In this document: piece after piece, positions 13,038 to 34,003 of the stretch | Layout: each line of letters starts with the position of its first letter | Numbering within the stretch: the stretch's first letter is position 1 | DNA from: Candidatus Bathyarchaeota archaeon | Lineage (GTDB): Archaea > Thermoproteota > Bathyarchaeia > Bathyarchaeales > Bathycorpusculaceae | Assembly: GCA_029881805.1 (NCBI GenBank) | Contig: JAOULW010000004.1 | Location: 62,001-126,000, forward strand | Length of the DNA stretch: 64,000 bases | Direction of reading: 5' to 3' | Notes under the pieces: model-generated | Seen by the model: the letters and a program-made list of their open reading frames with translations, nothing else | Database searches by the model: none | Told to the model about the DNA's origin: nothing | Program-made: the position numbers and the translations under genes

Positions 13038-13317
13038 GTCATTGCTTATACATCTTTACTCGGTAGACCGCTCTGGCTTTTCTCTTAGGGGGCAATAAAT
13101 AGCCCTGCACGCATGGTGCCATGTAGAGGAATGTGGCATCATGAGCAACAAGGTGTCCACCTGCCTGTACATCGACAGGGAAGTCTTGAAGGCCGCTCGT
13201 CAAATCGGGTTGAACGTCTCAAAGGTCGCGGAAAACAGCCTGATCGAGGCGATAGGTCGCCTATGCGACTCGAAACAGGAAGCCGGCCTAATTAGCCAAG
13301 CGCCAAGACTTGTGGAG

Positions 13318-13391
13318 GGCCGGGGCCGGGATTTGAACCCGGGCGCTAGGCTCCACAGGCCTATAGGCTACCAGGCTACCTCACCCCGGCC
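13318..13391 (-). tRNA. tRNA-His (GUG)
   Basis: The cloverleaf closes fully. Acceptor stem GCCGGGG/CCCCGGC with the encoded extra G at position -1 (13391) and discriminator C73, both specific to tRNA-His. D arm has GG in the loop; anticodon stem TAGGC/GCCTA encloses loop CTGTGGA with anticodon GTG; T stem CCGGG/CCCGG encloses TTCAAAT. No CCA is encoded and no intron is present. The 5' end of the gene is the integration site of the element to the right. A TATA-like stretch at about 13411-13424, inside the element, lies 21-34 bases upstream of +1. Confidence 0.95.
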
Positions 13392-13393
13392 AC
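13377..13393 (+). repeat. Left attachment-site repeat (attL core)
   Basis: TACCTCACCCCGGCCAC, 17 bases, identical to 33987-34003. It covers the first 14 bases of tRNA-His, the G-1 and two bases upstream. The intact tRNA is at this end. Confidence 0.85.
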
Positions 13394-17578: not shown

Positions 17579-18328
17579 CTATACCTTTCTGTTGCTTATT
17601 CGTTCTGTCATACTCGGCATTCCTTCAACGTAGTGAACAGCCGTCTCATATCTGGACCAATCAAACCAATCTTTAAGCTCGTGTGGTGTAAAGCCTTGCT
17701 CCGCTAATTCAGTAGCGAGGCTGTGCCTGAACCAGTGCGGATAAGCGTTATGATCTAGGGCCTTCAGTATTTTGTAAGCGTGAACCCGGCTCATTACGCC
17801 TTCTCGCTTGAACTCGTAGCGGTATTCCTTCTTGACTTCATTCGTCTGCTTGTCCTTCACCTTGACTATTTGAGTGTGGGGATAGCTGCGCCCAGGGAAC
17901 AGAGGCATTTCCATTTCGGCGAAGTCTTTAACGTAGTCTATTATCGGTATGGCAAAGGTTCGCTGGGACTTGACGCTTACGCGCTTAACCTTCTCTATTT
18001 GCTTGGCTAGTTCCGTTCTGCTTTTCTTCTTGAGGACCCTGAACCTCACGTAAAGGTATCCCTGCTTAGTGTACAAGTCTCGGCGTTTCAAATCCAACAC
18101 TTCAGAAATGCGTTTGCCGAAAAGGTAGAGTATGCACACTAAAGCCTTAACCATGCCGTAATGAACCGTTATCTCCTCACTATGCTCACGTCCTTCTTTG
18201 TCCTTGCCCTTGTAAAGGACAGGCCTCTTAGAGACTGCTAAAGCGTCAACAAACTCGAGCATACGCCTAACGTCCTGGCTTCTCAAAATATCCTCATGCT
18301 TAGTCTTTACAAACGGCAACTTTTTCAA
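17579..18328 (-). CDS. Second tyrosine recombinase, XerD-like
   Basis: A 249-residue recombinase unrelated in detail to the 472-residue one. It has the catalytic Arg in LFGKRISEVLDL, the HxxR box HWFRHSLATELAEQG, and the C-terminal WSRYETAVHYVEGM with the nucleophile Tyr (HYVE). The second catalytic His position reads LKDWFDWS, i.e. Trp replaces His, as in some active Xer homologues. The N-terminal core-binding domain is very short. It may resolve multimers or be a second integration enzyme. An AT-rich promoter (TACATATGTATATATA) lies upstream at about 18338-18355. Confidence 0.85.
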   Translation of the reverse strand: MKKLPFVKTKHEDILRSQDVRRMLEFVDALAVSKRPVLYKGKDKEGREHSEEITVHYGMVKALVCILYLFGKRISEVLDLKRRDLYTKQGYLYVRFRVLKKKSRTELAKQIEKVKRVSVKSQRTFAIPIIDYVKDFAEMEMPLFPGRSYPHTQIVKVKDKQTNEVKKEYRYEFKREGVMSRVHAYKILKALDHNAYPHWFRHSLATELAEQGFTPHELKDWFDWSRYETAVHYVEGMPSMTERISNRKV

Positions 18329-18875: not shown

Positions 18876-20450
18876 ATGGTATCTGAGAAGGCGCCTCGGC
18901 TTGTTCAAATTAGTTGGTGTCCAAACTGCAATGTTCCTGTTTTGAATGAAGGCCCTTGTAAGAACTGCTCGTCTGAAACTAGAAGAATTCCAGTAAATAG
19001 TTCAAGATTGAAACCTGTCTTCTCTGAAGAAAAGAGATTCTACAATCAAATTATTGATAAATCTCTGAGCACTTCTGACGACTTACTTCCTTCAGATGAA
19101 TGTTTCATCTCTTGTGGATCAGTTGTGGTGGATGGACAAAAAGCGTTTCGAATATCATTCACTGAAGGTGAATGGAAGGCAAAGGCATTCGCCAAATACG
19201 TGGTTGGTGACTTAGTAGGTTCAAACCTAGAGGAGGTTCTTAGAGCGAATGAGCATTTGCTTAAAGAAAAAGAAGCTGAAGCTGTAAGTTTTCTGGAGAA
19301 TACATTCGATCAATATGATCTTCCAGCAGTCGTATCGATGAGCGGGGGCAAAGATAGCGTAGTCGCTCTCTCGTTGGCTCTAAAAGTTGACAACAAGATC
19401 CCTGTTGTTTACATGAACACGACTTTGGATTTTCCGGAGACGGTTGATTATATTCATAGATTGTCAAGGGAATGGAAACTCGATCTTAACGAGATTCTTC
19501 CTGAAAAGAATTTTTTTGATTTAGCTAAGGAACTAGGGCCTCCAAGTTCAATGATGCCTTGGTGCTGTCAAACCCAAAAATTCGCCCCCTTCAACAAATA
19601 CTTGAACGCTAATTACCCTAAAGGTATTCTCTCAATTGAAGGATTGAGAAGATTCGAATCCGGGAAGAGAATGAACTATAAAAGGATTTCGCAAAATCGA
19701 GCGATTCCGAGGAAGAAATCTGTTTGTCCAATTCTGAATTGGACATCGCTCGATGTGTGGTTATATATTCTATGGAAAAAGATACCCTTTAACCCTGTTT
19801 ATGAATTTGGATATGACAGGATTGGTTGTTGGGCGTGTCCTCACAAAGGTATGCCATCATTTAGAATGATGGAGCACACTCATCCAAGACTTCTTGGTAA
19901 TTGGAATGAGTTTCTTCTGAGTTATGCTTCTAGCAATGGAAAAGACAAGGAATGGGTTCTGAATGGAAAATGGCGACTCAGACATGAACCATATGAGAAA
20001 GTATTGCTTCATTCGAAGAAACTCTGCGGAGCCGATAATTCTCTACTTTATGAGATAAAGGGTGATTTGAACTTACGCAGAAGCAAGGAATTTATGAAGG
20101 TCTTCGGAGAATCCAGAGGAAATAACAACATTCGTATAATACGAGGACACGATATTCAAATCTCAATTATAGGTAATAGTCTAAGAGTGACTTACACAAA
20201 CAAATTGATGGCAAGGTTATTTGAAAAACAATTAATGAAAGCAACTAACTGTGTCGCATGTGGAGCGTGTGTCGGAGCTTGCGAAGCCTTGAAAATCGAA
20301 GACAAGATCTTAACCATTAATGAAAGAGAATGCACTCACTGCTTAAGATGTACAAGTTCCAAGTACTTGAGAATGAGTTGTGTTGCTCTCAACTACCGGA
20401 AAAAGCGTTTTATCTGGAAAGAAGGGGCAGATCTAGCATCGAACGACTAA
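18876..20450 (+). CDS. PAPS-reductase-family protein with zinc ribbon and ferredoxin domain
   Basis: A 524-residue protein in three parts: N-terminal zinc ribbon (CPNC ... CKNC, about 14-29); an adenine-nucleotide alpha-hydrolase (PP-loop) core with SMSGGKDSVVAL (about 152-163), CCQTQK and CWACPHKGMPS; and a C-terminal [4Fe-4S] ferredoxin module with CVACGACVGACEA and CTHCLRC. The PP-loop family includes PAPS reductase, DndC (DNA phosphorothioation) and BrxP of BREX type 4. Related stand-alone proteins are common in methanogens, so the link to defence rests on context: it ends 6 bases from the convergent HerA gene of the PglZ operon. Confidence 0.85.
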   Translation: MVSEKAPRLVQISWCPNCNVPVLNEGPCKNCSSETRRIPVNSSRLKPVFSEEKRFYNQIIDKSLSTSDDLLPSDECFISCGSVVVDGQKAFRISFTEGEWKAKAFAKYVVGDLVGSNLEEVLRANEHLLKEKEAEAVSFLENTFDQYDLPAVVSMSGGKDSVVALSLALKVDNKIPVVYMNTTLDFPETVDYIHRLSREWKLDLNEILPEKNFFDLAKELGPPSSMMPWCCQTQKFAPFNKYLNANYPKGILSIEGLRRFESGKRMNYKRISQNRAIPRKKSVCPILNWTSLDVWLYILWKKIPFNPVYEFGYDRIGCWACPHKGMPSFRMMEHTHPRLLGNWNEFLLSYASSNGKDKEWVLNGKWRLRHEPYEKVLLHSKKLCGADNSLLYEIKGDLNLRRSKEFMKVFGESRGNNNIRIIRGHDIQISIIGNSLRVTYTNKLMARLFEKQLMKATNCVACGACVGACEALKIEDKILTINERECTHCLRCTSSKYLRMSCVALNYRKKRFIWKEGADLASND

Positions 20451-20456
20451 CCCCTA

Positions 20457-21785
20457 TTATTCTTCCTTCCGCATTTTTCGTAAAACATCCATCACCGATG
20501 TACCACTCATGGCTATCTTCTTGAGAATACTCGACTCAGCCCCTGCATGCCAACTCATTCGGGGTCTTATCGCAATTTGGGATATTGATTCTCTTTTGTC
20601 GTCGAAAAGCAAAGCAGCACCCTTAAGATCTCTGGGCAATTCGTTTAGGCTGTCTTTTACATCAGACTTTAGGTAAGTATGATGTATCTGATTTAGACCA
20701 TCAATATCTGGTTTTGCTGTCACTCTATGGGAAACAAGGATATCGGATTGAGTGATAGCCTCTGAAGAAAGTTTTCCTGGGTTTTGAGTAGCTAAAACAA
20801 TGCTGATGCCAGGATATCTGCCCTCTTTTATTGCGACTTCAAGTGGATAACTTGCAGCTGTCGAATGTGCAGATGGCAGAAATTCATGCGCTTCATCGAT
20901 AAGAATCCAAACCTTGGAGGCGATGTTCGATTCTTCGCTTGTACTTCCACTTATTTCTTTGAACTCTTCTGCTTTCCTTCTTTCTAATCTTATGTCCAGT
21001 ATCTTCTTGGTCAGCAAGCCCGCGACTAGGGCTCGAATGCTCCATTGCTTTGTTCCATGTTTTAACTCAGAAATATCTATGACTGAAATTTGCCCAGGCT
21101 TTAGGAAATCTTCTGCTTTAAATCCTTCTACACTAAAGATTCCCCAATTTTCAGCTGCCCGCAATTTATTTTCAATCGCCCTCATTGTGTTTTCAGCATT
21201 ATAAGGATCAGAATTAACTTCTGTAATGATATCAAAAATATCCCATTTTGAGGTTCGTTCGGTTAATTTGCTAACAGCTTTAGTTATTGCTATTCCCATT
21301 GGCTGATTCTCATCAATTTCGAAGGTCAGACACCAATCTTCAGGGGTAATATCAGACGGATGGAAAGCGAAAGTTTCAACTTCAAACTTGTGCTGCTCCT
21401 TAAGCCCTTTGGGAACAAACACTTTGACGTCAAATGCCTTTGGTTCCATGCCCCACTTTTCAAGCAATTTTTGTTGCTCTGTTCTTCGCGCTGGAAATTT
21501 TAGAGACCAGAAGATTCCCATCGTATCAATTACTATTGTTGCAATTTCCTCGCGAACCTCAGGTGGAGATTCAGCAATTCCCTCCACAATATTTCCTAAA
21601 GTCCATGACTTACCCGTTCCCCTCTTGCCACAGATTAGTATTACATGCGCTTTGTCTACATCCAAGTATATCGAATCTTGACCTTCAGTAAGTAATTTTC
21701 CCAAGAAAATTGATGCTAATTCTCCTACTTCCTCACATTCTCTTCTGTCTCTTCCAACTACCCATGGGATTGTCATTTTCACCAC
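20457..21785 (-). CDS. HerA-like hexameric DNA translocase ATPase (DUF87)
   Basis: A 442-residue ATPase of the HerA/FtsK superfamily. Walker A is ICGKRGTGKSWTLGNI (about 51-66), Walker B VWILIDEAHEFLPSAHS (about 290), followed by the YPGISIVLATQNPGKLSSEA sensor segment and an arginine-rich C-terminal VSHRVTAKPDIDGL. HerA proteins translocate along duplex DNA, often with nucleases such as NurA or Sir2. Here it is the last gene of the PglZ operon, overlapping the giant ATPase gene by 7 bases. Cytosolic; no nuclease domain of its own. Confidence 0.88.
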   Translation of the reverse strand: MVKMTIPWVVGRDRRECEEVGELASIFLGKLLTEGQDSIYLDVDKAHVILICGKRGTGKSWTLGNIVEGIAESPPEVREEIATIVIDTMGIFWSLKFPARRTEQQKLLEKWGMEPKAFDVKVFVPKGLKEQHKFEVETFAFHPSDITPEDWCLTFEIDENQPMGIAITKAVSKLTERTSKWDIFDIITEVNSDPYNAENTMRAIENKLRAAENWGIFSVEGFKAEDFLKPGQISVIDISELKHGTKQWSIRALVAGLLTKKILDIRLERRKAEEFKEISGSTSEESNIASKVWILIDEAHEFLPSAHSTAASYPLEVAIKEGRYPGISIVLATQNPGKLSSEAITQSDILVSHRVTAKPDIDGLNQIHHTYLKSDVKDSLNELPRDLKGAALLFDDKRESISQIAIRPRMSWHAGAESSILKKIAMSGTSVMDVLRKMRKEE

Positions 21786-24700
21786 AACAAACCAAATTTT
21801 TCAACTTCTTTGAGGAATTTTAAAACCTCCTCAGGTTTAAGCTTACGGCCCATTTTTTCACTTGATATTAGAGCTAAGACCGTTTCAAAAATTTCTTTTC
21901 TTTCATGTGCTTCTTTAATTTCTTTCAAAATCGTACTATAAGGCTCTTGTAATCCTTTCGGGATGCTTGCAATGATACTTTTTACATTTTCTTCGTTAAA
22001 TCTAGTGATGTGTTGCATAAAGGCTGTTATATCTTTGATTTGTGTTCCTGGGACTTTTATTTCTAATTGTTGCCATACTCCGTCAATATAACTTTCTGCG
22101 AATAACTCATATTTTTTTGAAAACTGTTCTTCTTTTTCCTTCCAGAAATCTTCCTTAAATCCCACGTTATATACATCACAGAATTTCTTAATGCCAGCAA
22201 TGCTCGTCTTATATTCTACAAATTTGGTTTTTACAAGGTGTTCATGAAGTGTCCTTTTAATTTCACTTTTCGCATCCATGTTCACCGTATGAAGAACAAG
22301 ACACCCATACGATTCATTAATGGTTAGACTTCCAAGAAGAGTGTCTGATTTTTTCTTTATTTCTCTCTTGTCAAGTATGCCAGCATCTCTTCTTGTCATA
22401 ATTTCTCGATACTCATGGTAGATCTTTCTCGCTCCTGTAAGAAATTTCTGATATTCTTCCGTCTTTTTCTTACACACATCTATTTTATTCGTCTCTGAGA
22501 AAATCTCGTCGAGCTTTTCGATTTCCTCTTTGATCATATCAAGTAATTCGAGGCAAACATTGGTCACAGCATCATTGTACTGAATGCCAGCTCTTTTGGC
22601 ATAGTCAACAATACCTTCGCCTCCTTCAACGTATCCTCTAGCTATGTTAAGTGCCTTTGTGACTTTTTCAAGATTCTTTATAGGCTTTAAAAGTTTAATA
22701 TAATCTTCAAAGTTCAAAGACGTTAAGTTTGAGAGTTTTTCTGTCGTGGAAGAAATATTAGGAACCACTGACATTTGTCCCTTAACTACTTCTATCCATT
22801 TAGAAACTCTCTTGGCCTCATCGCTCAGAACATCTTCCATCTTAGACCAAATGTTCATTTCCCATTGTTTCTTTATTTTCACTCTTTCTTCTTTAGTGCA
22901 TCCTTCCGACTCAAACCATGCATCAATAACCTTTTCAAGTCTTTCTTTTATTTTATCTGGCAATGGTAAGAGAGTCTCTTTTTCCATAGTTTGCGTCTGT
23001 TCGTTCCATTCTTCACCATAAGGATTCTTCAGCCATTCATTAAGTGAAGGGTACGCGCAAAGCGCTTCTTTTATCATTCCTAGAGTTTTCATAATTGCGG
23101 TAGATAAGGCATCACACCGTGCATGAGCAGTCAATTTTTGCTTAGTTAAATTGCTCTCTTTCTCTTCCAACATAATTTGCTTAGCTTCATTCACCAAAGC
23201 CTTCTCCATTCTTCGTTCAATTATTTGAGCTATTTTCTGCAAATCCTTTAGCTCACTGCTTTCTAACCTTAACTCGAAACCCTTGTCTGTTAGAAATGCA
23301 ATGGTCTTATCTATTTTTTCAATATCTTTAAGGAAACTTTTAGGGTCGACTATTTCTTTAAGTAGCTTGTAAGTAAATCTATTATCTTCCATCCTTCTCG
23401 CGAGTACAAGAGAGTCTGGGAACATCTTAAAAATTAAAAAAAGCGCAAGATCCACAGTTTCTACTAAGCTTCTGGTTTTCTTAGCCGCGAACTTTTGAAC
23501 ATTGAAACTTAGTAACGTTTCTTCGAGTATTTCCGCTTTGAATGGCTCGCAATTTTCCAAATATGATTGAAAAATATCATTTGCATCTTTCGTTTCATCT
23601 CCCACCATACCAAAGAGTTCTTTAAACTGTTTAGGAACCATTTTCCCGCTCATGGAGACATCGGTTTTTAGATATATCTCGTCGATTTGTTTTCCATGGT
23701 ATCCAAAGAAACCGGTGGTTATTAATCCCGCTGCAATTTTCCTATTTTCATCATCACACTTAATAGCTCCAATTTTCGCTACCTGATCGAGTAAATTTAG
23801 TAAGTCAGTATTATCAACCCATTTTTTCTTCTCGAATATCTGGGGCCAGGATTTTTCATCCCTAATCATTCCAATTGGTAAATCAATCTCCCATACTCGA
23901 TTAAGTACAGACTTTAACAAAGGATCGACGAGCATAGGATTAACTATGATATTTTTCAATGAGTTGAGCGAGAGATCAAGATGTTTGGCTTTAATGTCAT
24001 CAAATTCCTTTCCAAAAAAGCTTGGCATTTTGTCTAGTGCAAGGATGTAATCTATTATTTTTTCTCCTTCGAATCTACTTTCAGCTGGAAACCTTTCTTC
24101 TCCATGTACTGGATAAAGAAAGAGTAAATCCGAGAACTTAATTTTGTCCTCTTCCCATATTATATCATAACCTTCCCTCGCTACTGTATTTTCACTTCCC
24201 AATACCTCTCCATGAATGGCAAAGATTCTTTTCCACTGCATAGGATCAATTTTAGCTCTGGTTACTTCAGACTCTGGTGCTTTTAAACCAAGAAAATCTG
24301 GTAGAGGAGGTCCATAAATGCATAGAATAAGCCCAAACTGTAATTTCTTATTTTTTTGCAGCACCCTTTTAAGCTGAAGAGCATCTGCCTTCAACATGTC
24401 TTCGGAGGGCTTGAAATGTCTATAGTCCCTAAACAACACGACACCCATTATTTTTCTTTCAATAGCACCTCCGGTCATTGGATCAAAAGAAGATGAGACC
24501 GTCCACATATTGTCTTCAACGTATTTCTTCGCTTCCCATCCCCACACTTCAGTTATAATGTAAGGTGCTAGTCTTTTGTTTTCCATTTCCAGCTTTACGG
24601 TAGGACGTTCCCCTCCTACGCTACGAATTACTTCTTTAATTCTATCTATAACCTCTGGCCGAGGAGCAGTTAGTCGAACTTTTTCACCGTAGATTTGAAG

Positions 24701-26251
24701 CGTGTCACCTAAGCTTCTCATAACACTGTCAATTGTTCTATCTGGAAATTTCTCTTCTTCCAATTGCTTTCGGAACGCTACAAGGGCAACCTCAGTGCCA
24801 GTTCCAGCCAGTTTATAAAAGATTTCCAAAAATCTTCTTTCCAAATGGGTTCTTTCAAATTCTAATGTTGCGAAATTTTCTCTGTTTACGATGTATACAT
24901 TTTCTCTAATTTCTTCGATGGCGCCAATTCTTCTCATAGTTTCTAGGAATATATTAAATTCATACGCTTCCGCCTCAAGTAAGAATTTTTTCCGCAAAGC
25001 GTCATAATCAAATTCTTCAAATTGAACAAGAATAGCTTTTACCCATCTTTCAAGTTGCGGTCTTTTTCGTTTGGGCAGTGCCCTTTCCAACATCTGGACG
25101 CAATAGTTATAAAAATCAATTTTTATTGACTTGTCAAAGTAGTTTCTTATCACATACTCCAAAGTACAAATCCAATCTTTCTCGCCTGTCTCAGAATTTT
25201 TTATATAATCCTCATAACAAAAGTTTAGCACAGCCATACAATTCCTGAAGTTGTGATAAGAATAATGTGCTACAAATCGTGTTGCATCCTGGTCTTTAAA
25301 CGGGCTATATTTTTCTTGATTCAATCTCTTAAGATGTTCCATTATCGCTTCGTTAAGATCTTCAAATTCTAAGTTGGGAATTGACTGTGGTCTAAAGGCC
25401 TGACGAAACATCTCGGTAAAATTTACCCAAATTTTGCTCGTGCATGCCACGATCACTTTTAACCCCTGGGGCGTAAATTCTTGCACCAAATGTTCCCGAA
25501 GCTCTGTTTGCGTAATACTCTTAAGAAATATTCCATATCGTTCCATTTCGATTATCTTTTCCATTTCGTCGACATAAAGAACAAAAATGTCAATGTTTAG
25601 CTCCTTTCTAAGTCTGTTTAGAAAAACGTTGAGGAACGAATAAAATTCTTCTTGTGTAAATACTTCCTCTCTTAGAATTCGGCTAGAAGCACTTTCCAAT
25701 ACTCGCCTTCGTTCTTCTAGCTTTTCATCCTTACCAGTTTTCCTAAGTTTTTCATCGATCTCCTTTATCCACTCATCGTGAGTCGCAAGTTCTTTAAACC
25801 TTGGTTCAATTATTTTCCTTTTTGTTTCTTTTATCAAATTAACGACTTTTCTAGCAAACTCCTTTTGTGTACTATTAGCATTCTCGCTTGTTGAGACGCT
25901 TTCATAGATTTTTTCTAATTGAAGATATATTTCATTATGGAAGATTTGTACGTAGTTTACTTCCATTTCTTTTGCTGGTTTCTCACCCAATTTGCGAAAA
26001 ACTTCTTGTAGGCTAACATAACATACGACTTTATCTGTATCAAGTTTGAACTTTTCCGCTAAGTACTTCATTAAACGTGTTTTTCCTGAACCTACATCAC
26101 CGACTATAGAGTGCGATGGCCAAAAACCTCTGGTAATGCATTGATTTTCAAAAAAATCCCTAAATTTTACCATGGACCCGGACTTGGCAGTCCAAAAGGT
26201 TACGACGGGTTCCGGCTGAGGTGTAAATGGATTATCTAATTTTATCGTCAT
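21779..26251 (-). CDS. Giant P-loop ATPase, BrxC/PglY-like
   Basis: A 1490-residue protein. The N-terminus is an ORC/Cdc6-like AAA+ module with Walker A IVGDVGSGKTRLMKYLAEK (about 49-67) and Walker B IFVLYVDEMEKIIEME (about 222-237), then a sensor-like VIVACTSK. The central part (about 450-1000) has winged-helix-like and mixed segments including DIIWEEDKIKFSDLLFLYPV; the last 500 residues are long charged helices. Size, N-terminal ATPase and linkage to a PglZ gene match BrxC/PglY of BREX systems (DUF6079-type), which assemble on DNA. Identification is by architecture; overall similarity must be tested. Overlaps neighbours by 4 and 7 bases. Confidence 0.7.
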   Translation of the reverse strand: MTIKLDNPFTPQPEPVVTFWTAKSGSMVKFRDFFENQCITRGFWPSHSIVGDVGSGKTRLMKYLAEKFKLDTDKVVCYVSLQEVFRKLGEKPAKEMEVNYVQIFHNEIYLQLEKIYESVSTSENANSTQKEFARKVVNLIKETKRKIIEPRFKELATHDEWIKEIDEKLRKTGKDEKLEERRRVLESASSRILREEVFTQEEFYSFLNVFLNRLRKELNIDIFVLYVDEMEKIIEMERYGIFLKSITQTELREHLVQEFTPQGLKVIVACTSKIWVNFTEMFRQAFRPQSIPNLEFEDLNEAIMEHLKRLNQEKYSPFKDQDATRFVAHYSYHNFRNCMAVLNFCYEDYIKNSETGEKDWICTLEYVIRNYFDKSIKIDFYNYCVQMLERALPKRKRPQLERWVKAILVQFEEFDYDALRKKFLLEAEAYEFNIFLETMRRIGAIEEIRENVYIVNRENFATLEFERTHLERRFLEIFYKLAGTGTEVALVAFRKQLEEEKFPDRTIDSVMRSLGDTLQIYGEKVRLTAPRPEVIDRIKEVIRSVGGERPTVKLEMENKRLAPYIITEVWGWEAKKYVEDNMWTVSSSFDPMTGGAIERKIMGVVLFRDYRHFKPSEDMLKADALQLKRVLQKNKKLQFGLILCIYGPPLPDFLGLKAPESEVTRAKIDPMQWKRIFAIHGEVLGSENTVAREGYDIIWEEDKIKFSDLLFLYPVHGEERFPAESRFEGEKIIDYILALDKMPSFFGKEFDDIKAKHLDLSLNSLKNIIVNPMLVDPLLKSVLNRVWEIDLPIGMIRDEKSWPQIFEKKKWVDNTDLLNLLDQVAKIGAIKCDDENRKIAAGLITTGFFGYHGKQIDEIYLKTDVSMSGKMVPKQFKELFGMVGDETKDANDIFQSYLENCEPFKAEILEETLLSFNVQKFAAKKTRSLVETVDLALFLIFKMFPDSLVLARRMEDNRFTYKLLKEIVDPKSFLKDIEKIDKTIAFLTDKGFELRLESSELKDLQKIAQIIERRMEKALVNEAKQIMLEEKESNLTKQKLTAHARCDALSTAIMKTLGMIKEALCAYPSLNEWLKNPYGEEWNEQTQTMEKETLLPLPDKIKERLEKVIDAWFESEGCTKEERVKIKKQWEMNIWSKMEDVLSDEAKRVSKWIEVVKGQMSVVPNISSTTEKLSNLTSLNFEDYIKLLKPIKNLEKVTKALNIARGYVEGGEGIVDYAKRAGIQYNDAVTNVCLELLDMIKEEIEKLDEIFSETNKIDVCKKKTEEYQKFLTGARKIYHEYREIMTRRDAGILDKREIKKKSDTLLGSLTINESYGCLVLHTVNMDAKSEIKRTLHEHLVKTKFVEYKTSIAGIKKFCDVYNVGFKEDFWKEKEEQFSKKYELFAESYIDGVWQQLEIKVPGTQIKDITAFMQHITRFNEENVKSIIASIPKGLQEPYSTILKEIKEAHERKEIFETVLALISSEKMGRKLKPEEVLKFLKEVEKFGLLW

Positions 26252-26952
26252 AATGTCTCCATTTCATCTAACATTTTTAATATATCGTTCCAACTGAATG
26301 TCCTTCCTTTTGAATATTCACCACTTATTTTATCAAAAAACTCAAGGATCGTTCGTTCTTGAAGCTCAAACTTTCCAGCCACTATTTCGCAAAACGTTTC
26401 TTTGTCTTTCTTAAAATCAATCAGCTCATTTAAATAAACTCTTTTGAAGAAAAAGGATGTGATTACTCTCTCCGCTTTCTTCCATGCGTCATCATCACAT
26501 ACCGCAATAATGTCTGCAATTTCATTTTCTATTGGCCATCTTGCCTCCCGCCAATTCCGACAGATTTCCAGGTGATCAAGCACAATAAACACTCTTTTTC
26601 CTTTTTCTTTACAGATGGAATTTATTTTACTCATTTTGTTTAATATGGAATTAATTTCATCAATTTCACTAAAATTAATGTTAGGTAATAAATCCTTAAC
26701 CTGCTTGATGTACTCTTCCCAATTCACATTGACTCGCGGTTCGGGGCAAATAACGGGAGCAAATAGGTCTAAACGCACAAATTCCAACTCTTCATTAGTC
26801 ACATTTTTAACCAAAAACTTGATTACTTCAGTTTTACCAAAACTGTCTGGTCCTATGAAGGCTATTCCCCATTTGCTTGAGGATTTCTCTACATCCTTGA
26901 TTTTATTCTTTAAAGCTTCAAAAGCTTCTCTCTGTGGTGAAGTTAATTTCAT
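26248..26952 (-). CDS. Small AAA-type ATPase of the PglZ operon
   Basis: A 234-residue P-loop protein with Walker A FIGPDSFGKTEVIKFL (about 32-47) and Walker B RVFIVLDHLEICRNW (about 118-132), followed by sensor-like AERVITSFFF. The fold looks like the ORC/STAND branch. It overlaps the 1490-residue ATPase start and the preceding gene by 4 bases each, so stoichiometric co-translation is likely. Classical BREX operons do not contain a separate small ATPase of this type, which is one reason to regard the system as a variant. Confidence 0.65.
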   Translation of the reverse strand: MKLTSPQREAFEALKNKIKDVEKSSSKWGIAFIGPDSFGKTEVIKFLVKNVTNEELEFVRLDLFAPVICPEPRVNVNWEEYIKQVKDLLPNINFSEIDEINSILNKMSKINSICKEKGKRVFIVLDHLEICRNWREARWPIENEIADIIAVCDDDAWKKAERVITSFFFKRVYLNELIDFKKDKETFCEIVAGKFELQERTILEFFDKISGEYSKGRTFSWNDILKMLDEMETL

Positions 26953-27902
26953 AGCAGCTGTTCACCTTTTAAAGTAATTGAATAAATCAGCGTATTGTCA
27001 GGTAATCTAAGCCCTATTGCATCTTCCTTTGTTTTTTGACTGTACACTCTAATTTTGCCCATGTTACGTAATATCAGTGTTCGCATAATATAGTCAAACA
27101 TCTTTTCATTTATTCGAAATTTTTTACAAATGGAAGATTTTAGCTCATCAATTGGAACCATCAACAGAGTAACATCCCGTCCAATAATTTTATTATACTC
27201 TTCAAAAACCGCTCCCTTAAACTCTGGATAAGAAATCTTAACTTCCTTTTTGGAGATTCCCTGTACCTTTCCAGCCTCTTCGCTTATCCATTTAGCCTTT
27301 TTCGCAATAGCCAACAAAGCGTTCAAATGTGACAAAGAATACCTCCATTTTTCAACTGGTTTCCTTCTTTGTTCCATTTCTTTCTTTTTCTCTAGAAAAT
27401 AGTCGGGACGATTCGCTTTCGCACAAGCTAACATGTCTTCACTCAATCTTTCCTTTAAGACTTCTTTAGCGATGGGGACTGAATATTCATTTATGATAGT
27501 GATCAACAATTTGAATGGAATGTGAAACTCGTAAGCCCTTTTCGCAACGTACTCAAAAATCTTCTGGTCACTTGTCACATCGACATTTAGAATATCCCCA
27601 TCTACTCCAAACTCGGTGCCAGCACCCGCCTTTATCACATCAGCTGTTTGTTTCCCTTTTTCTATCCAAATTATCCCACTTTTTCTTAAGAGCCTAATAG
27701 GCTCGTTAAAATGCTTGGAACTAACGTCTTTGGTAAAGCCATATAGTTTGCTAAATTTCTCTCTAACATCGTCCAGCTGCACTACATACCTGCCATCTTT
27801 TTTCTTCACCGATTTTTGTAATGATTCAATTAATACTGCAATTGTGCCTGGCGCAACAAGTTCATATGACCAGGTAAATTTCATGTGTTCTTCTCCGCTC
27901 AT
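26949..27902 (-). CDS. Uncharacterised protein of the PglZ operon
   Basis: A 317-residue soluble protein. The N-terminal 90 residues look winged-helix-like (VAPGTIAVLIESLQKS, VREKFSKLYGF, FNEPIRLLRKSGIIWIEKG), and a second such unit appears near the C-terminus (LKSSICKKFRINEKMFDYIMRTLILRNMGKIRVYSQ), suggesting a DNA-binding adaptor with two wHTH modules around a helical middle. No family recognised. Sits 15 bases after pglZ and overlaps the small ATPase by 4. The first residues may be dropped in favour of the ATG at residue 7 (MKFTWSYEL). Confidence 0.6.
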   Translation of the reverse strand: MSGEEHMKFTWSYELVAPGTIAVLIESLQKSVKKKDGRYVVQLDDVREKFSKLYGFTKDVSSKHFNEPIRLLRKSGIIWIEKGKQTADVIKAGAGTEFGVDGDILNVDVTSDQKIFEYVAKRAYEFHIPFKLLITIINEYSVPIAKEVLKERLSEDMLACAKANRPDYFLEKKKEMEQRRKPVEKWRYSLSHLNALLAIAKKAKWISEEAGKVQGISKKEVKISYPEFKGAVFEEYNKIIGRDVTLLMVPIDELKSSICKKFRINEKMFDYIMRTLILRNMGKIRVYSQKTKEDAIGLRLPDNTLIYSITLKGEQLL

Positions 27903-27917
27903 TTCATAAACCCCTCA

Positions 27918-30900
27918 CTATTTTTCTAATCGCACTAAGGGTATAAATAGTTCGCACATCGATATCCCGCCATGAATCCCTCCATAGTATTTTTTCCTTT
28001 CTGGTCGGGCAAACATGCCAACAGTTGGAAAAACAATAAAGTCAGGCTTGATTGTCAAATTCCTTTTATTTTCTTCTATCTTTTTTTCCTCAAAAACTAT
28101 TTCATTAGCCTGTTGTGAAATCTCTAGAGCTTCTTTAATCTTCTCTTTTTTGTAGAGCCCACTTTTTAATAAAAAGATTGACATGAACTTTCTAGATGTG
28201 TGGCCCGGGATGCAAGAACCGATAAGCCGATCATCTTCAGCAAATAATTCACCTGTTCTATGCTTTGGTAAACATGCAAATCCTTCTACTGAGCCCAGTA
28301 TCTGATTTATTCCCTTAAATTCGCTTGTTCTTCCCAAGGCAAGTCCGTGATCTGCTGTGATGATGACAACTGTTCCCTTTTTTAGCTTATTGAAACCATT
28401 AGAGATGCGATTAACAACACTTTTCCAAAGGTCTAGGTATACCTCCCAATAATCCTTTACAACATCATTGAAAAATGCAGGCGGGTAGGGTGTATTGAGA
28501 GCTTGCAGAAAAGCGTCCATTAAATTAACTTGGGAAACAACGAGGTCATGAGTTCTGTCTGAAAGAGCTTCGTCTATTGCACTCGCATAAGCGCCAACTT
28601 GCTTAAAGGCGGCGTTGCCTTTAAATAGATACGAAAGAAAAGTCGTTTCTGAATTTGCGGATATAAGAAGACCTCTTTTTGAGGTTTGCCCAAGTGCTTT
28701 ATCCCACGACTCGGTCGGTCTCTGAAGGTTGCATTCTTCTAATCTTGGCCTCCAAATTACTGATTTACGGTTCTGTTCGTTTAAATGAAGGATGCTGAAT
28801 ATCTTTGCTTTATCCTCACCCTTATTAGGCACGAAAGAGTCGTCGGTTGCTCTTATAAGAAATGAATCATCATTGAGGAGCTTCTCTCCAAAAAATAAAG
28901 CAATATGGTTAACTCCGGTTACTGTTGGGATGCATGAAGACAAAATTTGAGCATTCCCCTTTTGGAAAAGGTTGACGAAGTACTCTGAGAATTCTGCAAG
29001 TTGCTTCGATTCTTTGCGAGCTATCTCTAAACATGCAAAAAAGGAATGAATGAAGCCAAGTCCATCAAAGATTAAAAGTATCACTTTTTTGTTTTCCTCT
29101 TGCAGTTTCTTAACTACATCAAAAACAGAGGTTATAGGCTGAAAATAGTCAAAATAATGATTCCTGCTTTTCTTTAACTGCAGACCGATGTATTTATCAA
29201 ATACGCATTGATAATCAAAAAATCGCGATGGTTCACGTTTAAAGAGCTTCAATGTGTTAACGGAGCAAAATGTCTCAAATGCTTTCCTAAATAGGCTGGA
29301 ATCAAATTGATCTTGTTCAATCTCTTCTTCAATTCTTCTTTTAAAGAAATTTAGTGGATTTCCTGTTTCCCATTGATTGATGAGTTTGTCAATTTCAATG
29401 GCTAACGAAGGGCGAATAACTATTTCATCTATCACTGCTTTCTTAATAAAATTAATAACATCTATGATTTGGTCACAGTGTTTATTTCGGAGTAGTTGAA
29501 GGAAAGCAATTTTCTCTTCAACACTAAAGATCGGATAGCCAAACAGTCCAATAACATATGGTAATACCTCCAATATTTCGTTGGAATCCATGTTTTCTAT
29601 TTGTTTCAAGACAGGGAGAAGATCATCCCATATCTGAGAAGCTGCGATTTTCTTTGTTGCGTAACGTGCTGTTATGGCTTTTAACTTGGTGCGCGCGCTG
29701 TCATGATATAACAAAAGTAGCTGTTCGAGTGCATCAACTTCATTCTCATCTTTAGCCAGTTCATTAATGTTCTTGAAGAACTCCTTGACTAAGTTCAAAT
29801 TTATTCCTAATTCGAGGGCTAAATCATATTCAAGAAAATCCTTGTAGCCGTACAAAAGCGAGTTAATTTTTTCCAACAGTACTTTGGCTTTCACAGAATT
29901 AAGTTTGGATGAATCAACTTTCGTTCTTTGGTAGGAAAACTCGAGCATCTTTTTGAGTTTCCAGACTACATAAAGCGATGATACATCCTCTTTACTGAAA
30001 CGCCACAGTCCATAACAGGTATTCATTCTAAAGGCATACTTTGAGACAAGTTTTTCTACATCGTCTCCCAATGGAAGTTTCTTGATTCTACTTTTGACGT
30101 CTTCCAAAAAATCTTGGATGACGTCTCCAGTTTTGTCAAGTGCACTAAGAAATATTAGAGCTGAGACCTGCTTAAGAGGAACCGATTTCTCGAGCGGATA
30201 AATATAGTCCAGTAAATAAGCATCAGGCTTATTTTGGATGTCAGTCGTGATGCCGAAACCAGGATAGACTACTGCGCCCATCTGGTATGCGTCATGCAGA
30301 AAAATGGCGAGTTCTAAGGGGCACTTAAATTCGCTTACGTAGGAAGTGATATCAATGTAAATATAGTTTTCTCGAAACTGGTGTCTCATGTACAAGGAAA
30401 GAGGATAGTAGATACCATTTAATCTAACCAGATCGAAAAACTCTTTTTTCATCGTCAATGAGAATTTTGACAAGCAACCTTTACATTTTTCAATTTTTTC
30501 TTCAGTGCAATACATTACTTCAGAGCAAAATTCCATATAATTTTTGAGCAAAATTAGCGAAATTACTAGATTAACTAAAGTGCTTTCCTTCATTTCCATG
30601 ATGTGCCTTATACAATATGGTAGTTCGTTGACCTCCGAAAATGCGTTTAAAACATCGTCATGACTTAGTTGAGAATCATGACTAACTGTTGTTAGATCAA
30701 GGCGTTTTGGCAATTTCTTTATGATTCTTTGAAAATCTTCTATTTCTTGCCTCTTTGCATATTCATCAGATATAAAGAGGAAAAAACAGGCATAAGGAGA
30801 AACGATTTCTCTTCTAATTTCTTCATCGGCTGGATTGAAAAATGCTGTTATTTTGTTGCGTTGAAGCCAAGATGTCAATCCCTTTACAGTCTCAATCTCT

Positions 30901-31061
30901 GTGATGATTACTCTTTTCTTTTGCCATTCTCCTTTAGCTGCTTTCTTGATCGCCCTATTGAGCGGAGATATTTTTCTCCAGAAATCGTGGACTTCAAATA
31001 TTTGCTTTGCTTGATTTAGAAGTTCTCTTCCTAAGTTCACTCCACATCGTTTCCGAATCAT
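27918..31061 (-). CDS. pglZ: PglZ-domain alkaline-phosphatase-superfamily protein
   Basis: A 1047-residue protein whose C-terminal third is a PglZ domain: metal-binding Asp in ILLIFDGLGFIHS (about 668-680), nucleophile-type Thr in CIPTVTGVNHIALFFGE, VVIITADHGLALGR, and the terminal YYGGIHGGISMCELFIPLV. These are the metal ligands of the alkaline-phosphatase fold. The first 650 residues are helical and unrecognised. PglZ is the hallmark of BREX/Pgl phage-defence systems and of Pbe phosphorothioation-linked systems. First gene of the tight five-gene operon; a TATA-like TTTATTATTA at about 31082-31093 gives a nearly leaderless start at ATG 31061. Confidence 0.88.
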   Translation of the reverse strand: MIRKRCGVNLGRELLNQAKQIFEVHDFWRKISPLNRAIKKAAKGEWQKKRVIITEIETVKGLTSWLQRNKITAFFNPADEEIRREIVSPYACFFLFISDEYAKRQEIEDFQRIIKKLPKRLDLTTVSHDSQLSHDDVLNAFSEVNELPYCIRHIMEMKESTLVNLVISLILLKNYMEFCSEVMYCTEEKIEKCKGCLSKFSLTMKKEFFDLVRLNGIYYPLSLYMRHQFRENYIYIDITSYVSEFKCPLELAIFLHDAYQMGAVVYPGFGITTDIQNKPDAYLLDYIYPLEKSVPLKQVSALIFLSALDKTGDVIQDFLEDVKSRIKKLPLGDDVEKLVSKYAFRMNTCYGLWRFSKEDVSSLYVVWKLKKMLEFSYQRTKVDSSKLNSVKAKVLLEKINSLLYGYKDFLEYDLALELGINLNLVKEFFKNINELAKDENEVDALEQLLLLYHDSARTKLKAITARYATKKIAASQIWDDLLPVLKQIENMDSNEILEVLPYVIGLFGYPIFSVEEKIAFLQLLRNKHCDQIIDVINFIKKAVIDEIVIRPSLAIEIDKLINQWETGNPLNFFKRRIEEEIEQDQFDSSLFRKAFETFCSVNTLKLFKREPSRFFDYQCVFDKYIGLQLKKSRNHYFDYFQPITSVFDVVKKLQEENKKVILLIFDGLGFIHSFFACLEIARKESKQLAEFSEYFVNLFQKGNAQILSSCIPTVTGVNHIALFFGEKLLNDDSFLIRATDDSFVPNKGEDKAKIFSILHLNEQNRKSVIWRPRLEECNLQRPTESWDKALGQTSKRGLLISANSETTFLSYLFKGNAAFKQVGAYASAIDEALSDRTHDLVVSQVNLMDAFLQALNTPYPPAFFNDVVKDYWEVYLDLWKSVVNRISNGFNKLKKGTVVIITADHGLALGRTSEFKGINQILGSVEGFACLPKHRTGELFAEDDRLIGSCIPGHTSRKFMSIFLLKSGLYKKEKIKEALEISQQANEIVFEEKKIEENKRNLTIKPDFIVFPTVGMFARPERKKYYGGIHGGISMCELFIPLVRLEK

Positions 31062-31134: not shown

Positions 31135-31908
31135 TTATCGAGTTTCAATTAATTCTTTGAATTTCTTCAATTGGTGCTGAATTTCTTCCTTCATCGTGGG
31201 ATGAATTTCTGTTTGTGTAAACATTGCTAGGAAAACTTTTCCGTAGTCTGTCGCAGGTTTTGATGGTACAAAAGTTGCTCGAAAGATTAGTTTACTTTTG
31301 GTTTTGGATATCTCTATAAAATCTATGTAGTCTACCCACGTGCCTTCTAACTCGACCTCCTGAAGTGAAGCGTCCATTCCAGCTGCTTGGACTTCAATCT
31401 TTGTTTTCTTTGTAGTGATATGGATTGGTTTGGTGAGTTCAATCTCTTCAAATGTTTCCACCCAAATGTCTCCTCTTTCCGGGTCAACTCTCTTTAGCCA
31501 GAAATGAGTTTCGTCAATTCTTCCAGCAGACCCATTAAGCAGAGTTTGAGATATCACGTCCATATCTCTCCAAAACTCCCAAACCTTCTCCACAGGTGCA
31601 TTAATAGAAATCGTTTCAGAACATTCACCTACGCTTTCATCCTTCTGTCCTTCTTCAAGGGTTGACAGCACGTCTTTTTTCCAATTCATCATCATTTCAT
31701 TGTATCGCTGAAACAATGAAACATCTTCTGAACTGATTCGTTTATTTTCTATGTCATCAGCTATGCAATTCAGAACATGTTCATTAGCCATAATTCGCCA
31801 AGTGTCGCTTTCAACCGAAGCTGTTCCAGTTTCAAGTTCTTTTCTAACTCTTCTTAACGCTTCAATGGTCTCAGAATGCGGTTTTTTCTTGCGGGTCCAA
31901 AAAGGCAT
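31135..31908 (-). CDS. SRPBCC (START-like) domain protein
   Basis: From the ATG at 31908, preceded by a good GGAGGT ribosome binding site, the product has 257 residues. The N-terminal 80 are charged helices (KKKPHSETIEALRRVRKEL). The rest is a START/polyketide-cyclase-like fold: ETISINAPVEKVWEFWRDMDVI, then beta strands and a C-terminal helix MKEEIQHQLKKFKELIE, the classic long closing helix. Such domains bind hydrophobic ligands. The upstream in-frame start at 31971 lacks a ribosome site. It lies 73 bases ahead of pglZ on the same strand, so may be part of the same module. Confidence 0.75.
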   Translation of the reverse strand: MPFWTRKKKPHSETIEALRRVRKELETGTASVESDTWRIMANEHVLNCIADDIENKRISSEDVSLFQRYNEMMMNWKKDVLSTLEEGQKDESVGECSETISINAPVEKVWEFWRDMDVISQTLLNGSAGRIDETHFWLKRVDPERGDIWVETFEEIELTKPIHITTKKTKIEVQAAGMDASLQEVELEGTWVDYIDFIEISKTKSKLIFRATFVPSKPATDYGKVFLAMFTQTEIHPTMKEEIQHQLKKFKELIETR

Positions 31909-31981
31909 TTTTATAACCTCCATCTGGTAAAACAAGTTAAAAAAACTCTCATTTTGCTTCTGCACGTGCACATATATCCGA

Positions 31982-33010
31982 TTACCCCACTACTATGATG
32001 TCTTTCAAGGCGATGATTTTAGGCCAGTTTTTTGGTGGTTCTTGTTTGTCGTTTTCCCAGCAAACTATGAAATCGCATTCTTGAGGTGGATGCTTATGTG
32101 TTTCAAATTCACTAGCGAACAGTTCCAGTTCGATTTTCTTCTCCTCTCCTCGATCATTTAGCACATTCACATCCGGGAACCCCTGCTGTATTCTCTTGAT
32201 ATAAGTAAAGCCTAGTTTTCTATGGTGCCTTGCAAAAAGATACAGCACCTCCTGTTCAGTCCTCGGCGCGTACAATAATCCCTCTCCAATTAAAGGTTCA
32301 AAAGATGCAGTAATTCCTCTAGTCAGTTGAGCAGCCCTAGGCGAAAGCTCCTCTCGAAATGTCGAGTAAAGAAACTTGGCAAAGTAGGCGTTATGCCAAT
32401 TTCGGGTCTCTTCAAGACTGTTCTTGAAATTTAGCAGCAAGTTGTTTAACAACTCATATTTCTTGCCAATTGTGGATTCATCATAGACCTCCCCATATCT
32501 ACTGTTGCTCTCGTTTTCCAGTGTAGTTCTTGTAATACCCAACATTTCACAGAATTTTTCAAGATCGCCTGTCCTAAAGGCATATATATCAATGTCAGGG
32601 TAAAAGCAGTTTATTATCTTCTTTGCAATGTGTTTGTCGCCACCCCACATCTTGATGTTTTCCCATGGAGCATCGACCTTCTGATGCAAGGGTTTAATAT
32701 CATCAACCGCGATTTTCAGAAGCCCTTTGAATTGGCTGATGTTGTTTGCAGCATTCTCCCATACACCAGCATGTCCAATATAGAGGTGCCCAAATCCCTT
32801 TAGCTTATGCTCGATCCAATCAAAGAAATATCCTGGATGCCCAGGATTATACAAGTCATCATGTGTAATGTTATTGATTAGTTGAGGGTTGCTTCGCCAA
32901 GGATATCTTTGATTGAATTTTCTTATGAGTTCCAATGCCTCATCAAGCTTCTTTTTCTGTTTGGAGTCTGGATCAAAAATTCGTGCTTTCTCAATTATCT
33001 CTTCAAACAT
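31982..33010 (-). CDS. Putative PD-(D/E)xK nuclease
   Basis: A 342-residue protein from the ATG at 33010. The N-terminal 230 residues are helical with conserved aromatic segments (YFFDWIEHKLKGFGHLYIGH, NIKMWGGDKHIAKKI). The C-terminal 110 residues look like a restriction-endonuclease fold: QGFPDVNVLNDRGEEKKIELEL with PD...ELEL as candidate metal ligands, then ECDFIVCWENDKQ. Such C-terminal domains occur in uncharacterised archaeal nucleases. It may be the effector of the neighbouring PglZ system; 74 bases separate it from the SRPBCC gene. Confidence 0.6.
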   Translation of the reverse strand: MFEEIIEKARIFDPDSKQKKKLDEALELIRKFNQRYPWRSNPQLINNITHDDLYNPGHPGYFFDWIEHKLKGFGHLYIGHAGVWENAANNISQFKGLLKIAVDDIKPLHQKVDAPWENIKMWGGDKHIAKKIINCFYPDIDIYAFRTGDLEKFCEMLGITRTTLENESNSRYGEVYDESTIGKKYELLNNLLLNFKNSLEETRNWHNAYFAKFLYSTFREELSPRAAQLTRGITASFEPLIGEGLLYAPRTEQEVLYLFARHHRKLGFTYIKRIQQGFPDVNVLNDRGEEKKIELELFASEFETHKHPPQECDFIVCWENDKQEPPKNWPKIIALKDIIVVG

Positions 33011-33192
33011 ACTCAAGCAAGTCAACCTTCAGAGGAGAAATTATCATGTTCTCAATAAGAGTTTTTCTTTTGCACAGACAGGCATCATCAATTGGAATCT
33101 CTCTAAGTCTGAATAACAGAGAAAAATGTATACTTATCAAGCACATAGAGACAAAAACCATTTGAGCCAAGTTAATACTAGGTGATATAGAG

Positions 33193-33876
33193 GTGGTTAT
33201 CCTGAAGAAGAAATACCCTAGAATAGTATTCAGGCTTGGTCGAAGGAAGACACCAAAAAGTAGCCGTGTATGGTTGGCAAGAAAGAGAGATAATTTTTCA
33301 AGAAAGTGGCAAAGGAATGGAAGTAACATTTTGAGAAATATCGAAAGGAATTGTGGCCTCCATTTCCCAAAGAAAGCAGTCGAAGAGGGAATCGAAGTCT
33401 ACCTGTATAAATGGAGAAGAGAAGATGGAGACTACTTAGGCGACATGAAGGAAACCGAGCCTTTAAGACTAAACATATACCTGAAGAAACGGAGCACGTG
33501 GAGAACTGTCAAAAGCACCTTGATTCATGAATTGGTACATTGCATAATGTGGCAAACTTACTACTTTGACTATAGAAGGAGAAACCCAACACTTTTTGAA
33601 GATTACTTTGCCGATGAAATGATAACATGCATAGTCGAACATATTGTTCTCGGAAGGAAACCCAGTCGAAAAATATGCCGTGAAGCTTTTGATTATGCTC
33701 TTAGCGAAACTAAGCTTCGTCTTGCACGCGTCGAGCATCCCCAAAAACTAGCAAGGTCGCTAATTGAGTTCACTCGAAGTTATAAGAGCCGAATCCGAAG
33801 CAGAAAGTCTAGTATTCTGGAGGAGAGACCGCGACTACTGCGAGAATTACCAAGTCCGCTGCCTGAAACAATCTAG
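33193..33876 (+). CDS. SprT-like zinc metallopeptidase
   Basis: A 227-residue protein starting with GTG. The zinc motif is LIHELVHCIMW (HExxH, about 117-121), followed by YYFDYRRRNPTLFEDYFADEM with a Glu/Asp that could be the third ligand, as in SprT/Spartan-like and related minigluzincin families. The N- and C-terminal tails are strongly basic (KKKYPRIVFRLGRRKTPKSSR; RSYKSRIRSRKSS), suggesting nucleic-acid association. Last gene of the element before the right repeat; transcribed opposite to the nuclease gene. Substrate unknown. Confidence 0.65.
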   Translation: MVILKKKYPRIVFRLGRRKTPKSSRVWLARKRDNFSRKWQRNGSNILRNIERNCGLHFPKKAVEEGIEVYLYKWRREDGDYLGDMKETEPLRLNIYLKKRSTWRTVKSTLIHELVHCIMWQTYYFDYRRRNPTLFEDYFADEMITCIVEHIVLGRKPSRKICREAFDYALSETKLRLARVEHPQKLARSLIEFTRSYKSRIRSRKSSILEERPRLLRELPSPLPETI

Positions 33877-33986
33877 ACTTTTCTCTAAAGGATTCCGACT
33901 ATCTGGAACATCGCCTATGAACAGGGACCGGAAAAAAGAAGGGTTTGCGTGGGTTCAAGTGGAGACATCTCCATTTTGACCGAGGT

Positions 33987-34003
33987 TACCTCACCCCGGC
34001 CAC
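33987..34003 (+). repeat. Right attachment-site repeat (attR core)
   Basis: Identical 17-base copy of the 5' end of tRNA-His (TACCTCACCCCGGCCAC). No tRNA body follows. The sequence to its right (CTAATTTTTAG at about 34017-34027, TATA-like when read on the minus strand) is probably the ancestral tRNA-His promoter, now 20 kb from the gene. Confidence 0.85.

What the first reader, a model, noticed from the sequence alone, without database searches (positions are those of the whole stretch)
20457..31061. Five-gene PglZ operon with HerA, giant ATPase, small AAA ATPase and an unknown protein: possible new BREX-type defence variant
pglZ, a 317-residue double-wHTH-like protein, a 234-residue AAA ATPase, a 1490-residue BrxC/PglY-like ATPase and a HerA ATPase are fused by 4-7 base overlaps (one 15-base gap) behind one promoter. 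PglZ plus a giant P-loop ATPase is the BREX core, but there is no PglX methylase, no BrxL and no BrxA/B, while HerA and the small ATPase are not standard members. The set lies in a tRNA-integrated island, the usual home of defence systems.
Basis: partly seen in the sequence, partly recalled or inferred. Interest (0 to 1): 0.93.

Follow-up and report, generated by a model that had tools for sequence, protein, structure and literature searches.

The report
Archaeal PglZ–HerA BREX-related defence operon
A 20.6-kb mobile element in an archaeal genome carries five tightly packed genes (a PglZ-type nuclease/phosphatase, a HerA DNA pump, two other ATPases and an unidentified protein) that most likely form a virus-defence machine of the recently described "BREX-related capture" kind, but without any of the DNA-marking genes that some of those systems carry.

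Summary
In detail: five minus-strand genes (20457-31061) overlap by 7, 4 and 4 bases with one 15-base gap. They lie in a 20.6-kb element bounded by 21-bp direct repeats at the 5' end of tRNA-His (20/21 identical), with an integrase beside the tRNA copy and low GC. PglZ keeps the full alkaline-phosphatase-fold motif set; HerA and both other ATPases keep Walker motifs. "Possible new BREX-type variant" is only partly right: a January 2026 paper (PMC12839542) describes BREX-Related Capture (BRC) systems made of PglZ, a BrxC-like ATPase, an active STAND NTPase, a DUF4007 DNA-binding protein and HerA, in a subset with GNAT and TGT. I found such a locus on a Haloplanus plasmid; its HerA is 38% identical to this one. 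The window's set lacks TGT and GNAT, its PglZ is 1047 aa (391 in Haloplanus) and comes first, and its other four proteins have no detectable sequence relative in anything searched. I file it as a probable divergent BRC variant, not proven. Its HerA belongs to an archaeal subfamily otherwise found as a stand-alone gene, so HerA kinship alone does not prove common descent.

The parts
27918..31061 (-). PglZ, 1047 aa: alkaline-phosphatase-fold phosphodiesterase core at about 640-1047 with motifs D666-G, P712-x-x-T715, D904-H905-G906, H1030-G-G; long N-terminal region; nothing after the core
   Evidence: BREX_PglZ_2 E 5e-4 (below the model's cut-off), PADLOC PglZ E 0.027; motifs in register with three other PglZ proteins
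26949..27902 (-). 317-aa protein, proposed DNA-binding (BrxA/DUF4007-position) subunit; identity not established
   Evidence: No family above cut-off; EAP30 (tandem winged helix) E 0.03; position matches the 286-aa protein of the Haloplanus BRC locus; no sequence match to it
26248..26952 (-). 234-aa P-loop ATPase with intact Walker A (GPDSFGKT, 34-41) and a Walker-B-like IVLD; proposed active STAND-type ATPase
   Evidence: Sequence; very weak ATPase_2/AAA_14 matches; position matches the small ATPase of the Haloplanus locus
21779..26251 (-). 1490-aa giant ATPase: Walker A 51-58, Walker B 228-229, mixed middle region, long helical C-terminal third; proposed BrxC-like scaffold
   Evidence: Weak AAA_22 only; layout like the BRC BrxC-like proteins; Walker-A region aligns with BrxC set above six shuffled and one reversed control; homology not proven
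20457..21785 (-). HerA/FtsK-type ATPase, 442 aa, DNA translocase
   Evidence: PF01935 2e-14; 37.8% identical to the HerA of the Haloplanus BRC locus, E 9e-83; up to 42% to stand-alone archaeal HerA-like proteins
18876..20450 (+). PAPS reductase-type protein with C-terminal 4Fe-4S ferredoxin region, convergent with HerA (6 bases between stops); possible but unproven partner
   Evidence: PF01507 3.7e-42; BrxP model 8.7e-59 but a chromosomal control also matches BrxP at 2.9e-47; only copy in the genome and sparse in relatives
31135..31971 (-). 278-aa protein upstream of PglZ on the same strand, weak SRPBCC/START-like match; possible extension of the operon
   Evidence: Polyketide_cyc2 E 0.016, below cut-off; 73 bases before PglZ
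31982..33025 (-). 347-aa protein, C-terminus looks like a PD-(D/E)xK nuclease by eye; possible auxiliary nuclease
   Evidence: No family match; motif FPD...IELELFASEF...CDFIVCWEND read from sequence; inference
13373..13393 (.). Direct repeat at the 5' end of tRNA-His: one end of the element
   Evidence: 20/21 identical to 33983-34003
33983..34003 (.). Direct repeat: other end of the element
13433..14851 (-). Tyrosine integrase of the element
   Evidence: PF00589 1.1e-16
17579..18328 (-). Second tyrosine recombinase in the element
   Evidence: PF00589 4.9e-14

Best explanation
The five genes encode one multi-subunit anti-invader machine of the BREX-Related Capture (BRC) kind, carried as cargo of an integrated mobile element. 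Proposed working: the 317-aa protein and the giant ATPase bind and scan incoming DNA (inferred); the giant and the small ATPase assemble on it with ATP (inferred from intact Walker motifs); the HerA ring pumps the captured DNA (inferred from homology to HerA/FtsK translocases) to PglZ, a metal-dependent phosphodiesterase of the alkaline-phosphatase fold, which nicks or cuts it (inferred; PglZ of Type-1 BREX has this activity, PMC12205998). No DNA-marking gene lies in the operon, so self is either recognised without a mark or marked by a gene outside it, the PAPS reductase being the only candidate noticed in the element. Shown here: gene arrangement, catalytic motifs, HerA kinship to a BRC HerA, location in a mobile element. 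All activity is inferred.
For: The five part-types that the BRC paper lists apart from GNAT and TGT are all matched in kind: PglZ (motifs), giant AAA+ ATPase, small ATPase with intact Walker motifs, a further small protein, HerA. The strongest tblastn match of this HerA in 72,556 plasmid records is the HerA of a BRC locus in Haloplanus (37.8%, 88% covered, E 9e-83; the other five hits are at 20-23% identity). The run small protein - small ATPase - giant ATPase ... HerA is in the same order in both. The giant's layout resembles the BRC BrxC-like proteins. Mobile-element setting with att-like repeats and integrase.
Against: Four of the five proteins have no detectable sequence similarity to their BRC counterparts. 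The closest relatives of this HerA by identity are stand-alone chromosomal genes, not BRC genes. PglZ is 1047 aa against 391 aa in Haloplanus and sits first rather than between BrxC and HerA. The exact operon was found nowhere else. No defence phenotype is known for any member that I could find.
Confidence: 0.6

Rival explanations
1. Independent assembly: a defence operon that works like BRC but is not of one descent with it. A stand-alone archaeal HerA-like gene, a long BREX-type PglZ and two unrelated ATPases came together separately.
For: Window HerA is nearest to stand-alone DPANN copies (up to 42%) and is an unresolved long branch in the tree; the other four proteins do not match BRC proteins; PglZ differs in length and position.
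Against: Same set of part-types and partly the same order as Haloplanus BRC. Even the Haloplanus BrxC-like protein does not match a Type-1 BREX BrxC in single-sequence hhalign, so missing sequence signal is expected either way.
Confidence: 0.13
2. The set is the mobile element's own DNA-handling machinery (replication, partition or transfer): HerA as a segregation or transfer pump, the ATPases as loaders, the 317-aa protein as a site binder, PglZ as a processing phosphodiesterase.
For: The genes lie inside an integrated element; HerA/FtsK and Orc/Cdc6-type ATPases also serve DNA movement; no known defence gene with a family-level hit stands next to them.
Against: PglZ with a giant ATPase is a recurring defence pair (PMC12839542). 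No replication-initiator, relaxase or coupling-protein family hit among the element genes scanned.
Confidence: 0.1
3. A phosphorothioate-based system akin to BREX Type 4, with the PAPS reductase as marking enzyme and HerA in the place of BrxL.
For: BREX Type 4 combines PAPS reductase, PglZ, BrxC and a DUF4007 protein. A PAPS reductase with the ferredoxin region matches BrxP over 97-507 of 779, lies 6 bases from HerA's end in the same element, and is the genome's only copy. Twelve aminotransferase class-V (PF00266) matches exist elsewhere in the genome, so a cysteine desulfurase in trans is possible.
Against: The gene is on the opposite strand, not in the operon. The BrxP score is not specific: a Methanomethylovorans chromosomal enzyme scores 2.9e-47, and similar genes in relatives stand in ordinary surroundings where I read them. 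No BrxL, and no DUF4007 hit at E 0.1.
Confidence: 0.12

Closest known systems
BREX-Related Capture (BRC) systems (PMC12839542, 2026); example found here: Haloplanus sp. HW8-1 plasmid NZ_CP098519 (L012)
   Same: PglZ, giant AAA+ ATPase, small ATPase with intact Walker motifs, one further small protein in the DUF4007 position, HerA; HerA 38% identical; order small protein - small ATPase - giant ... HerA
   Different: No TGT, GNAT or queuosine-type genes; PglZ 1047 aa instead of 391 and first in the operon; four proteins without detectable sequence similarity to the Haloplanus ones
BREX Type 4 (phosphorothioate-based)
   Same: PglZ, giant ATPase; a PAPS reductase lies in the same element
   Different: PAPS reductase on the other strand, no BrxL, no DUF4007 hit, HerA present
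BREX Types 1-3
   Same: PglZ and a giant P-loop ATPase; PglZ long, with nothing after the core, as reported for Type 3
   Different: No PglX/BrxX methylase, BrxL or helicase in the element; HerA present. A true Type-1 locus was seen in a genome of the same order (L138)
HerA/FtsK capture systems including DndFGH (PMC10853773)
   Same: HerA-type pump combined with an Orc/Cdc6-type ATPase and a DNA-binding protein, mobile setting
   Different: PglZ in place of the restriction nucleases described there; DndH match is weak (E 2e-4)
MADS (mad8 HerA-like ATPase)
   Same: mad8 model matches the HerA (3e-15)
   Different: Stand-alone archaeal HerA matches mad8 as well (3.1e-17), so the hit is not specific; no other mad model matched the neighbours except a weak 0.02 hit of the giant

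Membership tests
BRC system | HerA/FtsK translocase (universal in BRC) | tested here: met
   PF01935 2e-14; 37.8% identity to the Haloplanus BRC HerA, E 9e-83. Same subfamily also occurs stand-alone
BRC system | PglZ with catalytic alkaline-phosphatase-fold core | tested here: met
   All motif residues present and aligned; BREX_PglZ_2 5e-4, below the model's cut-off
BRC system | PglZ short, lacking the HTH units and helical connector | tested here: not met
   1047 aa with about 640 aa before the core; Haloplanus 391 aa. The paper gives this as a description of BRC PglZ, not as a criterion of membership
BRC system | BrxC-like DUF6079 AAA+ ATPase | tested here: inconclusive
   Giant ATPase of right size and layout, Walker A aligns above controls, no DUF6079 or BrxC_BrxD hit
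BRC system | Enzymatically active STAND NTPase | tested here: inconclusive
   Small ATPase with intact Walker motifs; no STAND family hit, no match to the Haloplanus one beyond Walker A
BRC system | DUF4007 tripartite DNA-binding protein | tested here: inconclusive
   317-aa protein in that position, no DUF4007 hit, model of pLDDT 40
BRC system | GNAT and TGT (in a subset only) | tested here: not met
   Absent from the element; the genome's single TGT is on another contig
BREX (Types 1, 2, 3) | PglX/BrxX methylase next to PglZ and BrxC | tested here: not met
   No methylase hit among the operon and neighbouring element genes scanned
BREX Type 4 | PAPS reductase (BrxP) in the system | tested here: inconclusive
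   Present in the element but convergent, and the BrxP hit is not specific
BREX Type 4 | BrxL | tested here: not met
   No BrxL hit among the proteins scanned against PADLOC
MADS | mad1-mad7 partners, including a methylase and a kinase (recalled, not looked up) | tested here: not met
   Only mad8 matched with support, and stand-alone HerA controls match it as well
Any defence system | Restricts viruses or plasmids | not testable with these tools
   Needs experiment

The most novel reading that the evidence does not exclude
A mark-free relative of BREX/BRC: a PglZ nuclease fed by a HerA pump that tells foreign from own DNA without any DNA modification; or one in which a PAPS reductase encoded in the same element supplies a phosphorothioate mark, joining BREX Type 4 chemistry to HerA capture.
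Probability: 0.17. Interest if true: 0.75.

Novelty: new variant of a known kind. Interest (0 to 1): 0.5.

Why it matters
BRC systems were proposed in 2026 from 45 taxa, and I found no experiment on any of them. A version stripped to five genes, with no marking enzyme in the operon, would be a compact system for asking what HerA and PglZ do together and whether a BREX-type machine needs a DNA mark at all. It also shows a tRNA-borne integrated element as the vehicle, and four of its five proteins escape or barely reach the family models tried here, so such loci are easily missed by defence finders.

Tried and rejected
Related-locus scans with PglZ (genome contigs, viral contigs) and with the giant (viral contigs) found nothing; plasmid tblastn of the giant, PglZ, the 317-aa and the 347-aa proteins found nothing. 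Whole-genome searches with the giant (257 genomes of the class, 398 of the phylum, overlapping sets), HerA (398) and PglZ (61) gave no convincing counterpart; the few matches of the giant and PglZ were 12-20 bits over short stretches. A HerA hit in G578 proved a canonical HerA. Small-ATPase plasmid hits (E 0.05) proved to be conjugation ATPases. Two AlphaFold jobs without alignment failed (pLDDT 35 and 40), so no fold search was run. MADS was rejected because stand-alone HerAs match mad8 as well. PAPS reductase as a diagnostic of Type-4 BREX was rejected because a chromosomal control also matches BrxP. A PF08665 scan of the phylum found a true Type-1 BREX and a DUF499-type locus in G105, used only as comparators; PF08665 itself does not find the window PglZ. 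The empty integration site could not be shown: the neighbouring peptidase gene has no close counterpart in the relatives searched.

Full report
What is there. Five minus-strand genes occupy 20457-31061: PglZ (1047 aa), a 317-aa protein, a 234-aa ATPase, a 1490-aa ATPase and HerA (442 aa), with one gap of 15 bases and overlaps of 4, 4 and 7 bases.

Setting. ARAGORN finds tRNA-His at 13317-13390 on the minus strand. A 21-base stretch covering its 5' end (13373-13393) recurs at 33983-34003 with 20 of 21 bases identical. A 472-aa tyrosine integrase lies next to the tRNA copy (13433-14851) and a second tyrosine recombinase at 17579-18328. GC falls to 36-38% over the operon against 40-44% outside the element. 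This is a 20.6-kb integrated element, and the operon is its largest cargo. The insertion is at the 5' end of the tRNA gene rather than the 3' end, which I believe to be the more usual place.

Protein identities. HerA is clear (PF01935 2e-14). PglZ is weak by model (BREX_PglZ_2 5e-4, below that model's cut-off) but its catalytic motifs fall in register with PglZ proteins from a Type-1 BREX locus, a DUF499-type locus and a BRC locus: D666-G, P712-x-x-T715, D904-H905-G906, H1030-G-G. In the E. fergusonii enzyme a threonine (T538) and a histidine (H741) of this site are needed for metal binding and cleavage, and PglZ there is a metal-dependent nuclease (PMC12205998); I take T715 as the likely counterpart of T538 because it is the invariant threonine of the motif (inference). 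The 1490-aa protein has Walker A at 51-58 and Walker B at 228-229, a middle region richer in Gly/Pro and a long helical C-terminal third; BRC BrxC-like proteins show a similar layout. Homology is not proven: only the Walker-A region aligns above shuffled controls. The 234-aa protein has intact Walker motifs.

Known counterpart. PMC12839542 describes BREX-Related Capture systems in 45 taxa, with PglZ, a BrxC-like DUF6079 ATPase, an active STAND NTPase, a DUF4007 DNA-binding protein and HerA, and in a subset GNAT and TGT. A tblastn of the window HerA against plasmids gives one strong hit, a Haloplanus plasmid at 37.8% identity and E 9e-83. Around it lie QueD-, QueE- and QueC-type genes, TGT, a 286-aa protein, a small ATPase, a 1363-aa BrxC-like protein, a 391-aa PglZ, HerA, GNAT and a QueF-like protein: a BRC locus with a 7-deazaguanine pathway beside it. 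An Oscillatoria plasmid carries a GNAT-TGT fusion, a 286-aa protein and a BrxC-like protein without PglZ or HerA nearby in the stretch read. The window operon has the five non-marking part-types in partly the same order and none of the marking genes. The genome's only TGT is on another contig.

HerA history. A scan of 84,980 species genomes with the two-HerA alignment returned 113 relatives, of which the best 80 were kept, headed by Aenigmatarchaeota, Micrarchaeota and Woesearchaeota (up to 42%) and including many Methanosarcinales. Their neighbourhoods show no PglZ/BrxC-like set recurring beside HerA; in Methanosarcinaceae the gene sits among conserved ordinary chromosomal neighbours. In the tree the window and Haloplanus genes are both long, unresolved branches near the base of the subfamily. 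So the HerA of these two operons belongs to an archaeal HerA-like subfamily that is otherwise stand-alone, and HerA kinship alone does not prove that the operons share descent. The subfamily was found in no other genome of the phylum sample (the one other hit is a canonical HerA), in line with horizontal arrival.

PAPS reductase. It lies in the same element, convergent with HerA, 6 bases between the two stops. The BrxP hit is not diagnostic, because a Methanomethylovorans chromosomal enzyme matches the same model. Only 5 of 40 relatives have a similar gene, in ordinary surroundings where I read them. It remains a candidate marking enzyme, no more.

Uniqueness. No convincing counterpart of the giant ATPase was found in 257 genomes of the class or 398 of the phylum sample (overlapping sets), nor of PglZ in 61 genomes. 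So the exact operon is, in what could be searched, unique to this genome. That weakens conservation as evidence for one system; the gene packing and the Haloplanus parallel still make a single functional unit likely.

Verdict. Probable anti-invader system of the BRC kind, a divergent variant without a marking module in the operon; confidence 0.6. Proposed mechanism: DNA bound by the giant ATPase and the 317-aa protein, pumped by HerA and cut by PglZ. The anatomy, motifs, element setting and HerA kinship are shown; all activity is inferred.

Noticed in passing
L016-L095 (80 loci): An archaeal HerA-like ATPase subfamily of about 430 aa, conserved as a stand-alone chromosomal gene in DPANN archaea and Methanosarcinales, well separated from canonical HerA in the tree; no partner gene explains its role.
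   Followed up: partly
L012 9284-22124 (Haloplanus sp. HW8-1 plasmid NZ_CP098519): BRC locus with TGT and GNAT that also has QueD-, QueE-, QueC- and QueF-type genes beside it, which fits a 7-deazaguanine DNA mark; the paper's main text names no Haloplanus.
   Followed up: partly
L096 9729-15909 (Oscillatoria nigro-viridis plasmid): GNAT-TGT fusion, 286-aa protein and BrxC-like protein in a row, without PglZ or HerA in the stretch read: a partial or separate BRC-like set.
   Followed up: partly
L138 6109-18761 and L137 3-10718 (G105, same order as the window genome): A complete-looking Type-1 BREX locus and a DUF499-type set with methylase, helicase, PglZ and a BrxA-like protein in one archaeal genome.
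   Followed up: partly
window 13373-13393 and 33983-34003: Element inserted at the 5' end of tRNA-His, so the tRNA now has element DNA upstream of it.
   Followed up: no
window 33193-33876: SprT-like metalloprotease-type gene at the far end of the element (SprT-like E 2e-4, below cut-off; weak phage metalloprotease matches).
   Followed up: no
window 31982-33025: 347-aa protein whose C-terminus looks like a PD-(D/E)xK nuclease, upstream of PglZ on the same strand; no family match.
   Followed up: partly
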